Source: Schizochytrium sp. TIO01 (Eukaryota > Sar > Bigyra > Thraustochytrida > Thraustochytriidae). From it: a stretch of DNA of 64,000 nt. This document shows, in pieces, positions 59,769-63,866 of the stretch. Made by a program: the position numbers and the translations under genes. A model generated the notes under the pieces. The model was given only the letters and a program-made list of their open reading frames with translations, was not told the DNA's origin and ran no database searches. How positions within the stretch are numbered: the stretch's first letter is position 1; each line of letters opens with the position of its first letter. The DNA is taken from contig SMSO01000025.1 of NCBI GenBank assembly GCA_004764695.1, forward strand, positions 3,431,102 through 3,495,101, written 5' to 3'.

Positions 59769-62700
59769 ATGAGTTATGTAGGGTCGCACATTTCGGGGCG
59801 CAACCAAAATGGATATGGTGGCGGGGTATGGCAAGAACACGTTGACCCGCGAAGCGGTTTGACATTCTACCATAACGTAGTAAATGGCATGAGTGTGTGG
59901 AAATTACCTGAAGATCGTTGGCACAAAGCTCGAGACCTGGAGTCGGATCGATTATACTATTTTAACCTCTATCGTCATCAAAGCACTTACGCAGAACCAA
60001 TTGGATATGTTGACGAAGACTTTCAAAAGGTTCAGGTGCTGCCTTACAACCGAGCTGCCCTCGGTATGAGCGGCGAACGCAAAGATAATGTCGGCTTTAT
60101 CCCTGCTTTTGACCCCAGCAGAAACTCTACGTTCTGGCACTCATCTGGGCAAACGGTGTGGCGAAGACCTCGAGGTGCTCAGTACAGCCTGGATCAACTA
60201 CGACCTTCCCAAGAGTACGAGCGAATGGAGCATGCTGCCCGGCAGCTCCAGAGTCGCATTCACGATGTCTCTGATGAGATTTCTAGGCTAGAAATGATTG
60301 AGACACAGATTGAGGAAACTGCAGACGCGCGTTCGAGACGTCTTGCTCGTCTCCGTGGTCAAAGAAGTGAGTCTGAAGCTATGGAAAGACTTACACTTCG
60401 TGAAAAGGGAGTTACACGTTTTCTTGAAACCTCCTTTGGTCACGTAGCACTTCGCAGCTCCTTTCGTGTTAACGTACCAACCGTTGACTCCTTTCTAAAG
60501 TCGGTGCCCATCTTCCATAATCTGGACGAAGAGCAGTTTGAGTTGGTACGGAAATCGTTACGTAAACAAACCTTCGTTCCTAATGAGGTTATTGTGCGGC
60601 AAGATACCAAGGGCGATTTATTCTATCTTATTATTGAAGGTAAGGTCAGAGTTTACGTACAAGGTGCGTGGACCGAGGATCAGGGATTACTACCCGAGGA
60701 TAATGCATTCGGCAAGCTCGTCAATGAGTTGATTCCTGGAGACTTCTTTGGTGAAAAGGCTCTCCTTGAAGACAAAATGCGCACTGCAACAGTTCTTGCT
60801 GCAACTCACGTTGCAACTTACACACTATCTCGGGATGTCTTTTGCAAGGTTATCAAGCCGGATGAGCTCATGGACACTTCCAACACACAATTGTCGCATA
60901 TGAGCCTCGAGGTTGCAAGTTTTACAAAGCACGTGGGAAATTTCGATGTTTTGCTCTCGTTGAAGCGCCGAGCAAATACTGAACGTGAACGTCGTGTAGC
61001 AGAGGCACTAATGCTTCTAATGACCGCATTTAGCCCTGAGCTGAACGTTGTAGACACTGTTGCACGGATGCGGAAGACTTTGTTTCAGATTTTCAATTGT
61101 GAGCGTGTCTCTCTGTACACTGTGGATTGGGAAAAGCGCCAACTGCAAATGCAATTCGGGCAGGATCTAGAGACGACATTTACTTTGGATATTGGGGAGG
61201 GCATTGCCGGGCACTGTGCCGCGATGAATAAAATTGTCAATGTACCGCATGTACATAAGAATGAGCATTTCTATGGGGAAGTAGAGCCTGCTAGTTCTGG
61301 TTTTGTAACACGGAATGTACTATGCTGTCCTGTTTGCACGGATGATGGTACAGTGATTACTGTGATCGAGCTTTTAAACAAACGTGGCGGTGCTCCCTTC
61401 TCAGAGGAAGATCAAGATGTCATTGCTTCGGTAAGCGAACAAATGAGTGCAACTCTGGCACAAAAGCGTGCCGAGCAGCTGAATGATTTCTCTCTTGTGC
61501 ACTACTTGCCAATTTGGCAAATTGATGAGCCTCTCAAGATCAAATTGAATCGTGTTTTGGGAACAAGTCTGCCGGGCCATGTACTGTCGGACTCCTTTAT
61601 TGTCGCCACTTCTATATACTACGCTGGCCAGCCTCTGGCACCAACAAAGTATTTACAATGCACTGCAGAGCGTCTCATGCCATACATGGTTGTGCCGTTT
61701 GAGACAACTGTAACCCTGGACATCACCCTTTCAAACCTTCCGCGTGCTGCACGTGTCATCTTTAACGTGTACTACTCACCTAAGACTGAGGAAACCGCAG
61801 ATTCAGATCTGATCAGTGCTATTATTGATGAACAGGCAAAGCGAGATGCGAAGCGGGAGATGGAGGAAGAAGCTGCCATGGAAAAAACTCTGAGCAGCCA
61901 TCACAGACAAAGCTCCACACGCCAACATCCTACTGAGCGAGACAGAATTCGTAAAGAGAAGCAAACACGTCGCAATATAGAGATGGAGCGCTTAGTAAAA
62001 GAGGGCCTAGCGACTCCGATAGGATGGGCAGGTTTGACTCTTTTGGACTTTGACCAAGTCATGCGCAGTGGACACATGCGTCTCAAGCTCTTTCGTGGGG
62101 AGGCAGGACCAGATATGGCTGCTGTAGCAACCTTGCTAAGTAATAATACTCGGGCAAAGGATGCAGTTGACTTTCTCGAAATTACCTTGCCTGCTAGAAG
62201 AAAACCAGTTGTATACAGTGATCACGTGTCTGACGCAGAAAAGCTTGATGCAGATGAAACAGCTGCTCCTCAACGCTCCAACCTTTATAAATTAATGCGT
62301 GCAGAGCTGGAGAAGTTCATTCATAGCGACCCTCTTCGTCCATTGAGCAATGATGAAAAACTTCTTGTTTTACAGACTCGTCGTGAACTTATGGATGATC
62401 CTGCTGCGTTGCCAAAGTTTTTGCAAGCCATTGACTGGTCAAAGCGGTCTCAGACTCAACTCGCTTATAACATGCTTAACCTCTGGGCAATGCCGGACCC
62501 AGTCGTTGCGTTACAATTGTTAGACTTCAAACATCCAGATCCTAAGATTCGCGCCCTTGCTGTTGCAGCGCTTGAATCCATGTCAGATCTTGATCTTGAA
62601 GAGATCATGCTGCAACTTGTCCAAGTTCTTAAGTTCGAACGCTTCGTGGACTCTGCTTTATCTCGTTTCTTGCTCCGGCGCGCGCTGCGCGCACCTGCTG

Positions 62701-63866
62701 TGATTGGGCATCGTTTGTTTTGGTTGCTCAAGGCCGAGATGCATATTCCAGAGATTGCGGATCGCTATGGTGCCTTACTAGACACCTACTTGCGACACTG
62801 CCGAGCGAGACAAGAACTGGGTCATCAACAATTTGTTAATAGCAAATTTGAGTCAATCGCTGCGGCAGTCAAACTTGAAAAGCCACAGAAACGATCTGCT
62901 TTGCTAAGACAACAACTGGAGTCTGTAACATTGCCTGATGAGTTCCAGCTCCCATTGTCTCCTCACCTGTTCTTCCGAGGCCTGAACGTAGAAAAATGCC
63001 GTGTGATGAATTCTAAGAAAGCACCTTTGTTCCTAGAGTGTTTACAAGCTCGCCCCGGTGCACCGCCGGTCTCGGTGCTATATAAGTCTGGCGATGATTT
63101 GCGGCAAGACCAGCTGACATTGCAACTTTTGCGTACAATGGACAGACTCTGGAAAACTGAAGGGCTTGATTTGCGGTTATCCCTGTATAGTGTCGTGTCA
63201 ACAGGCAACGAACGCGGAATGATCCAGATTGTTCCTGATGCGGAAACCTTAGCCCGAATTACAGCTGGGCGCGGAGGCGGCAAGTTTAGCAAAGCTGTGA
63301 AGGTTTTTGATGACAAGAAACTAAAACGGTATTTGCAGAACTCTGGTTATGCGCGCAAGGTTACGGAGCAAAACTTCAAGTGTTCTTGTGCTGGCTACTG
63401 TGTAGCTACCTATGTCTTGGGCATCGGTGATCGTCATGCGGATAACATCATGCTAACACGGGATGGCAAGCTATTTCATATTGACTTTGGTCATTTTTTG
63501 GGCAACTTTAAGTCAAAGATGGGTATCAAGCGTGAGCGGGGTCCTTTCTTATTTTCCAATGCCATGGCAACCGTTCTAGGGCCACAAGATCGCCCCTTGT
63601 TTAAGGAGTTTGAGGATCTGTGCGGTCATGCATACAATATTTTACGTCGCAATGCCAACCTACTGATTACATTGTTTTCATTAATGCTTTCCAGTGGTAT
63701 GCCTGAGTTAACTCGGGAGTCTGACATTGACTGGGTTCGGGATCGTTTAATGCTTGACGCTACCGAGGAGGAAGCTGCTGAGCGTTTTCGTGATCTTATT
63801 CAAGAAGCCTTGTCAACATGGACAGCAACGCTTAACGACTTTGCACATGTCATGCGTCGGAATTAG
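59769..63866 (+). CDS. Phosphoinositide 3-kinase with WW, cyclic-nucleotide-binding and GAF domains (novel architecture)
   Basis: A 1365-residue uninterrupted frame. In order: WW domain 1 (about 19-47, W21, W44, P47), WW-like repeat 2 (51-77, second Trp replaced by Tyr) and a third degenerate repeat (107-134, W131, P134), then a coiled coil (about 146-215). A cyclic-nucleotide-binding domain follows (about 241-362; [19 protein letters not shown], E329 and R338 spaced as in the PKA cassette). A GAF domain (about 421-570) ends [13 protein letters not shown] (N537, K538, F544, D548), close to the NKFDE motif of cyclic-nucleotide GAFs. Next are a PI3K C2 (about 585-780, with a charged insertion at 680-740; [12 protein letters not shown]) and the helical PIK domain (about 835-1000). 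The kinase (about 1050-1365) has K1106 in [27 protein letters not shown] (D1221, N1226) and D1239-F-G. The loop [14 protein letters not shown] matches class I enzymes that use PI(4,5)P2. It lacks recognisable adaptor- and Ras-binding domains. The C-terminal helix is complete. Confidence 0.93.
   Translation: [1365 protein letters not shown]

What the first reader, a model, noticed from the sequence alone, without database searches (positions are those of the whole stretch)
59769..63866. A PI3-kinase fused to WW, cyclic-nucleotide-binding and GAF domains
One intact frame joins phosphoinositide kinase modules (C2, helical, catalytic) to two classes of small-molecule sensor domain and N-terminal WW modules. 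Known class I PI3Ks are regulated through adaptor subunits, Ras or G-protein subunits. I know of no described PI3K carrying a cNMP-binding or GAF domain. If real, this would be a single-polypeptide switch from cyclic nucleotides to 3-phosphoinositides.
Basis: partly seen in the sequence, partly recalled or inferred. Interest (0 to 1): 0.88.

Follow-up and report, generated by a model that had tools for sequence, protein, structure and literature searches.

The report
PI3-kinase with built-in cyclic-nucleotide sensors
A eukaryotic microbe encodes a PI3-kinase, the enzyme type that makes the membrane signal PIP3, joined in one protein to two sensor domains of kinds that can bind cAMP or cGMP, and its genome holds a second, similar fusion, so this cell may switch PIP3 signalling directly with cyclic nucleotides.

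Summary
Window 59769-63866 (+) is one open 1365-codon frame with WW, cNMP-binding (CNB), GAF, and PI3K C2, helical and kinase domains, each above Pfam's cut-off. Codon signal favours it in 26 of 26 windows, thinly at aa 950-1100. The 60 best solved relatives of the kinase are all class I.

Both sensors look like cyclic-nucleotide receivers. The CNB keeps the cassette Glu, Ala and Arg plus the Thr that favours cGMP. The GAF matches 20 solved sequences, 19 of them cyclic-nucleotide PDE or cyclase GAFs, but the last residue of its NKFDE motif is Gln.

So both class I-type PI3Ks found carry CNBs, perhaps captured separately (weak).

Ligand binding and control of the kinase are inferred. My literature searches listed no description of this architecture; no broad eukaryotic protein database could be searched. 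New variant of a known kind.

The parts
59769..63866 (+). whole gene: one uninterrupted frame, 1365 aa, ATG to TAG
   Evidence: codon signal best in 26 of 26 windows
59829..59909 (+). WW domain 1 (aa 21-47)
   Evidence: Pfam PF00397; WW relatives in PDB are PRPF40A/FBP11 and WBP4, weak (best E 0.0012)
59913..60005 (+). WW domain 2 (about aa 49-79)
   Evidence: Pfam reports two WW stretches but prints the limits of one; these limits are my reading
60087..60179 (+). degenerate third WW-like unit (about aa 107-137)
   Evidence: read by eye only; not reported by Pfam
60189..60443 (+). charged, probably helical linker (about aa 141-225), possible dimerisation region
   Evidence: inference from residue make-up; no coiled-coil program was run
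60474..60893 (+). cyclic-nucleotide-binding domain (about aa 236-375; Pfam 267-363)
   Evidence: PF00027 53.6 bits; PKG/PKA relatives in PDB
60747..60794 (+). phosphate-binding cassette: E329, A331, R338, T339
   Evidence: roles of the residues from passages of PMC3080414 and PMC10959531
60981..61478 (+). GAF domain (about aa 405-570; Pfam 430-562)
   Evidence: PF01590 41.2 bits; 19 of 20 PDB sequences matched are cNMP PDE or adenylate-cyclase GAFs
61377..61415 (+). NKFDE-motif region of the GAF: N537, K538, F544, D548, Q549 (Glu expected in the last place)
   Evidence: motif from passages of PMC4411481 and PMC11977230
61590..62111 (+). PI3K C2 domain (aa 608-781) with a charged insert
   Evidence: PF00792; the insert is my reading
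62289..62810 (+). PI3K helical (PIK accessory) domain (aa 841-1014)
   Evidence: PF00613 171 bits
63069..63713 (+). PI3-kinase catalytic domain (aa 1101-1315; tail to 1365): KSGDDLRQD 1106-1114, GIGDRHADN 1218-1226, DFG and activation loop 1238-1260 (FKSK and KRER)
   Evidence: PF00454 188 bits; alignment to p110beta; positions

Best explanation
It is a class I-type phosphoinositide 3-kinase whose regulation is built into the chain instead of coming from a p85-type subunit. WW domains hold it at partners with proline-rich motifs. A CNB domain (probably preferring cGMP) and a PDE-type GAF domain, placed in front of the C2-helical-kinase core on the side where class I enzymes have their Ras-binding domain (order recalled), act as a ligand-gated control: binding of a cyclic nucleotide moves them and changes kinase activity or membrane access, giving PtdIns(3,4,5)P3. 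Shown: the intact frame, the residues of the CNB cassette and the catalytic motifs, the PDE/cyclase kinship of the GAF, a second CNB-PI3K in the same genome, and matches for cyclases and PTEN-type proteins. Inferred: ligand binding, its identity, the sign of control, and the lipid product.
For: Each domain above its Pfam cut-off in one frame, with the coding signal best in that frame in 26 of 26 windows. Kinase: 240 PDB sequences match, the 60 shown are all class I isoforms, p110beta first at 430 bits; activation loop FKSK...KRER as in p110beta. CNB: E329/A331/R338 kept, T339 at the place of PKG Thr193; 2 of the 34 CNBs aligned have E, A, R and T together (roles of residues). GAF: 20 PDB sequences match, 19 of them cNMP PDE or CyaB2 cyclase GAFs. 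The genome gives 20 cyclase-domain matches, 5 PTEN_C2 matches and no p85 iSH2 match over the cut-off. The paralogue L009 repeats the logic: SH3 x3, CNB stretches, RBD, C2, helical, kinase.
Against: No ligand, activity or transcript data. The last Glu of the GAF's NKFDE motif is Gln, and alanine at each motif residue abolishes cGMP binding in PDE2 GAF-B (PMC11977230, passage). Met stands before the cassette Arg, where Pro is the commonest residue among the CNBs. The isolated PKG I CNBD-A, which has the Thr, prefers cGMP only two-fold (PMC3080414). Two of the three CNBs of L009 have lost key residues, so CNBs in such proteins can decay. The coding margin is thin at aa 950-1100. Structure prediction was off, so pocket geometry and contacts with the kinase were not seen.
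Confidence: 0.6

Rival explanations
1. The CNB and GAF domains no longer bind cyclic nucleotides; they serve as dimerisation or docking modules, or bind another small molecule (as nucleosides do in trypanosome PKA), and the kinase is controlled by WW-mediated recruitment.
For: NKFDE ends in Gln; two of the three CNBs of L009 lack key residues; trypanosomatid PKA CNBs bind nucleosides (PMC10959531, passages).
Against: The window's CNB keeps Glu, Ala, Arg and Thr; the trypanosome-type changes (Ala to Glu, Arg lost) are absent. The GAF's solved relatives are PDE/cyclase GAFs in 19 of 20 cases.
Confidence: 0.27
2. Only one sensor works: the CNB gates the kinase with cGMP, and the GAF is a structural spacer on the side where the Ras-binding domain would be. 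(Compatible with the main reading; the odds overlap.)
For: CNB cassette complete, GAF motif with one substitution; no PI3K_rbd match listed with E up to 10 (the program's filters drop most weak matches).
Against: A Glu-to-Gln change is mild; of the seven other GAFs of this genome aligned, four have Glu at that place and three do not (L056, L057, second GAF of L058), but whether any of these binds a cyclic nucleotide is unknown.
Confidence: 0.3
3. Gene-model artefact: two neighbouring genes read as one frame.
For: No transcript evidence available.
Against: No stop in 1375 codons (chance about 8e-29), the frame is the best of six in 26 of 26 windows, and a separate gene of the genome has a similar fusion.
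Confidence: 0.03

Closest known systems
Class I PI3K catalytic subunits (p110 alpha, beta, gamma, delta)
   Same: helical and kinase core with C2, catalytic motifs, basic activation loop; best PDB matches
   Different: no p85-binding or Ras-binding domain listed; WW, CNB and GAF domains instead; no p85 iSH2 match over the cut-off in the genome
L009, the second PI3K fusion of the same genome (G000:C30:1919800-1928800)
   Same: class I-type core (42.6% identity over 533 aa), CNB domains, domains that bind proline-rich motifs at the N terminus
   Different: SH3 in place of WW, several CNBs in place of CNB+GAF, Ras-binding domain kept
cGMP-dependent protein kinase and PKA regulatory subunits
   Same: CNB with Glu/Ala/Arg cassette and, as in PKG, Thr after the Arg
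   Different: the effector is a lipid kinase, not a protein kinase; one CNB, not two or more
PDE2/5/6/10 and cyanobacterial CyaB2 GAF domains
   Same: sequence kinship of the GAF and N, K, F, D of NKFDE
   Different: single GAF joined to a PI3K; last motif residue Gln
Oomycete lipid-kinase fusions: GPCR-PIPK (PMC5784254, search listing only) and the P. sojae list of PMC2705460 (passages)
   Same: lipid kinase joined to an upstream signalling module in a protist group
   Different: PIP5K joined to a receptor, or PI3/4-kinase with pleckstrin; the passages that I saw mention no cyclic-nucleotide sensor on a PI3K

Membership tests
Class I PI3K | C2, helical and kinase domains in this order | tested here: met
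Class I PI3K | closest to class I rather than class III | tested here: met
   the 60 shown of 240 PDB matches are all class I; control: the genome's L010 scores class III 329, class II 177, class I 171 bits; within the genome the window's core matches L009 with 418 bits and L010 with 102 and 99 bits
Class I PI3K | class I rather than class II | tested here: inconclusive
   no class II chain is among the 60 shown, but class II scores are not printed and no tree with class II was built; the published tree splits I/II from III firmly, while the grouping of bikont sequences with unikont class I is not significantly supported (PMC4617754 section 7)
Class I PI3K | activation loop with two basic boxes (PtdIns(4,5)P2 use; rule recalled) | tested here: met
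   FKSK...KRER, aligned to p110beta
Class I PI3K | Ras-binding domain | tested here: not met
   no PF00794 listed with E up to 10 (weak matches may be filtered out); present in L009 at 25.9 bits, cut-off 22
Class I PI3K | adaptor-binding domain / p85-type partner (class IA) | tested here: not met
   no ABD match listed; no PF16454 match over the cut-off in the genome; a divergent partner is not excluded
Class I PI3K | makes PtdIns(3,4,5)P3 | not testable with these tools
   needs enzyme assay
Ligand-binding CNB domain | cassette Glu and Arg, Ala two after Glu | tested here: met
   E329, A331, R338
cGMP-favouring CNB | Thr after the cassette Arg | tested here: met
   T339; [quoted passage not shown]
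cNMP-binding GAF domain | NKFDE motif | tested here: inconclusive
   N, K, F, D present, last Glu is Gln
cNMP-binding GAF domain | kinship to PDE/cyclase GAFs | tested here: met
   19 of 20 PDB sequences; 19-25% identity to seven GAFs of the own genome

The most novel reading that the evidence does not exclude
In this lineage the class I PI3K branch as a whole has been put under direct control of cyclic nucleotides: the two class I-type PI3Ks found are single-chain cGMP/cAMP-gated PIP3 switches, reached by separate captures of CNB domains, without a p85 subunit and, in the window's enzyme, with a cNMP-type GAF where the Ras-binding domain would be.
Probability: 0.4. Interest if true: 0.82.

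Novelty: new variant of a known kind. Interest (0 to 1): 0.64.

Why it matters
Cyclic nucleotides and 3-phosphoinositides are two of the great second-messenger systems of eukaryotes, and in well-studied cells they talk through intermediates (PKA, EPAC, Ras and Rap; recalled). A PI3K with the receptor domains in its own chain would be a direct wire between them, would show how class I PI3Ks can be regulated without p85, and would offer a ready-made cGMP- or cAMP-inducible PIP3 generator for cell biology. That the other class I-type PI3K found in the genome is also a CNB fusion makes chance or artefact unlikely and gives an internal comparison (with and without a Ras-binding domain).

Tried and rejected
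Artefact of joined genes: rejected on the open frame, the codon signal and the similar fusion in L009.

CNBs of the two PI3Ks as one inherited fusion: not supported. The window's CNB falls with CNBs of L024, L027 and L032 (support 90/69, not strong), and a tree holding it with the third CNB of L009 is mildly rejected (p-AU 0.029). Branches are long; this is weak. Only 30 of the 113 CNB matches were in the tree (those given as loci), plus the window's and three of L009. L027 has a protein kinase and two CNBs (PKG-like); L024 and L032 have two CNBs in frames of 400 and 384 aa, which I read as PKA-R-like.

Other lipid-kinase-like matches (L004-L007) were not classified; the statement about three PI3Ks rests on the PI3Ka domain (three over the cut-off, two below).

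Relatives elsewhere: scans of viral and prokaryote contigs with the whole protein and with the kinase alignment confirmed none, as expected for a eukaryotic gene. No collection of eukaryotic proteins or transcripts was on hand, so the distribution of the architecture is unknown; databases may hold orthologues nobody has described.

Host: not identified. The searches for SSU rRNA and for PUFA synthase did not complete. Genome size, the window's 45% GC (mean) and long uninterrupted genes would fit a thraustochytrid, but that is recalled and untested.

Structure: structure prediction was off. The joint CNB+GAF alignment A1 laid GAF rows on the CNB and was not used further.

NCBIfam gave, far below their cut-offs, five matches in the window's CNB region and, for L009, five in its CNBs and one in an SH3 region. 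The neighbouring ORF 56826-57926 has no Pfam match listed with E up to 10. The WW and linker piece also has a weak match to SNF6 (E 0.0013), which I take as chance.
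Full report
OBSERVATION. The frame 59739-63866 on the + strand is open from stop to stop for 1375 codons. Its first ATG is at 59769 and gives 1365 aa. With the window's stop-codon frequency of 0.046 such a run has a chance of about 8e-29. Pfam finds, each over the curated cut-off, WW (two stretches), cNMP_binding (267-363), GAF (430-562), PI3K_C2 (608-781), PI3Ka (841-1014) and PI3_PI4_kinase (1101-1315). A codon model trained on nine other frames of the genome, without this gene, prefers the frame in 26 of 26 windows; the margin is thin at aa 950-1100, where the score is near zero. 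The genome (64.06 Mb, 37 contigs) gave one full-length match.

THE KINASE. Of 240 PDB sequences that match the protein, the 60 shown are all class I isoforms, p110beta first (E 1.1e-127, 430 bits), over residues 725-1364. KSGDDLRQD (1106-1114), GIGDRHADN (1218-1226) and [23 protein letters not shown] (1238-1260) are complete. The activation loop has the two basic stretches of class I enzymes, which by established knowledge (recalled) allow use of PtdIns(4,5)P2. Class I against class II was not settled: no class II chain is among the 60 shown, but class II scores are not printed. A published phylogeny (PMC4617754, section 7 read) separates class III from I/II firmly and reports one class I/II copy in bikont lineages such as SAR, with duplications in some of them, stramenopiles included; the grouping of those copies with class I is not significantly supported. 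No Ras-binding or adaptor-binding domain is listed for the window's protein, and the genome shows no p85 iSH2 match over the cut-off (four weak matches, of a kind also seen below the cut-off in 8 of 14 prokaryotic controls).

THE CNB DOMAIN. Alone it matches 116 PDB sequences, led by a Toxoplasma chain with several CNBs and by cGMP-dependent kinases (the first of these apicomplexan, recalled), then PKG 1 and PKA RI; the totals of the leaders are sums over several CNBs, the best single stretch shown having 47.9 bits. The cassette reads [16 protein letters not shown] (327-342). By the PKG I structure paper (PMC3080414, passages) the Glu holds the ribose, the Arg the phosphate, and Thr193, next to the Arg, favours cGMP; by PMC10959531 (passages) the Ala two places after Glu is a Glu in the nucleoside-binding trypanosomatid proteins. 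Here E329, A331, R338 and T339 are all present. Of the 34 CNBs aligned (30 of the 113 genomic matches, plus the window's and three of L009), 19 keep E, A and R, and 2 of these, the window's among them, also have T. PMC3080414 also reports that the isolated PKG I CNBD-A prefers cGMP only two-fold, so selectivity is a guess.

THE GAF DOMAIN. Alone it matches 20 PDB sequences; 19 are named as cyclic-nucleotide phosphodiesterases (PDE2, 5, 6, 10 and kin, one a PDE5-PDE6 chimera) or as adenylate cyclase (1ykd, the CyaB2 structure), and one as a metal-dependent phosphohydrolase. The NKFDE motif marks most characterised cyclic-nucleotide-binding GAFs (PMC4411481, PMC11977230, passages). Here it reads N537, K538, F544, D548, Q549. 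The Gln is a departure; the second paper reports that alanine at each motif residue abolishes cGMP binding in PDE2 GAF-B. GAFs of the genome brought in lie in GAF-cyclase frames (L056, L057), tandem-GAF frames (L058, L059) and L060. Of these seven aligned GAFs four have Glu at the last motif place and three do not; what they bind is unknown.

A SECOND FUSION. PI3Ka has three matches over the cut-off in the genome and two below it. The three are the window's gene, L010 and L009. L010 is of class III type: Vps34 chains 329 bits, class II 177, class I 171. L009 is an intact 2222-aa frame (coding signal best in 43 of 43 windows) with three SH3 stretches, four cNMP_binding stretches (three domains by my reading, the third with an insert), a Ras-binding domain, C2, helical and kinase domains. 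Its kinase part also matches class I best (the 60 shown of 145 are all class I) and is 42.6% identical to the window's over 533 aa. So both class I-type PI3Ks found carry CNBs. Of L009's CNBs only the third keeps E, A and R. The CNBs of the two genes do not group: the window's falls, without strong support, with those of L024, L027 and L032, and holding it with L009's third CNB lowers the likelihood (p-AU 0.029). Separate capture is the better reading, weakly.

MECHANISM. Proposed: WW-mediated docking; a cyclic nucleotide binds the CNB (and perhaps the GAF); the movement passes through the GAF, which lies just before C2, to the kinase core and changes PIP3 output. Parts of both pathways are present in the genome: 20 cyclase-domain matches, 5 PTEN_C2 matches and 113 CNB matches. 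Binding, ligand, sign and lipid product are inference. Rivals are decayed or repurposed sensors (0.27) and the CNB as the only working sensor (0.3, overlapping with the main reading).

LITERATURE. Ten searches of the PMC library were made; eight bear on novelty. Searches (5 of 5 papers; 20 of 20; 3 of 3) were listed in full; others (15 of 401; 12 of 15; 12 of 5,505; 12 of 26; 15 of 162) only in part. By title and start of abstract no listed paper is about a PI3K with CNB or GAF. Term counts in main texts: PMC3024228, PMC4617754 and PMC3823935 (surveys of PI3Ks or phosphoinositide kinases) have no 'cyclic nucleotide' and no 'GAF'; nor have PMC9694693 and PMC3727952. PMC2705460 on oomycete domain fusions lists a PI3/4-kinase with pleckstrin and, as another protein, cyclic nucleotide binding with a regulator of G protein (two passages). 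PMC3019232 is on protein kinases; 12 of 17 places were shown. PMC5784254 and PMC6033456 were seen in listings only. This does not show absence from other papers or from databases.

VERDICT. A real, intact, unusual protein; a new variant of class I-type PI3K. What would lift it further is a distribution search in eukaryotes and one binding and activity assay.

Noticed in passing
L009:454-7122 (-), G000:C30:1919800-1928800: Second PI3K of the genome with three SH3 stretches, CNB domains and a Ras-binding domain in one 2222-aa frame.
   Followed up: yes
L056:1321-5181 (-) and L057:1412-3031 (-): Frames with GAF domains in front of a nucleotide cyclase domain.
   Followed up: partly
L027:400-2595 (-): PKG-like frame (protein kinase, two CNBs) whose aligned CNB has His in place of the cassette Glu (FGHKALL).
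   Followed up: no
window 56826-57926 (+): 366-aa frame upstream with a proline-rich stretch and no Pfam match listed at E up to 10; by eye its N-terminal part recalls a SYLF domain (recalled, untested).
   Followed up: partly
window 8059-9144 (+): Frame with an F-actin-bundling C-terminal domain (PF18060, 42.4 bits).
   Followed up: no
window 38160-38365 and 40154-40349: Long tetranucleotide runs (AAAG and TTTC type), inverted to each other, about 1.8 kb apart; other short tandem runs near 1950, 19250, 19450 and 21980.
   Followed up: no
window 2728-3081: Two 176-nt copies, 100% identical, start-to-start 178 nt.
   Followed up: no
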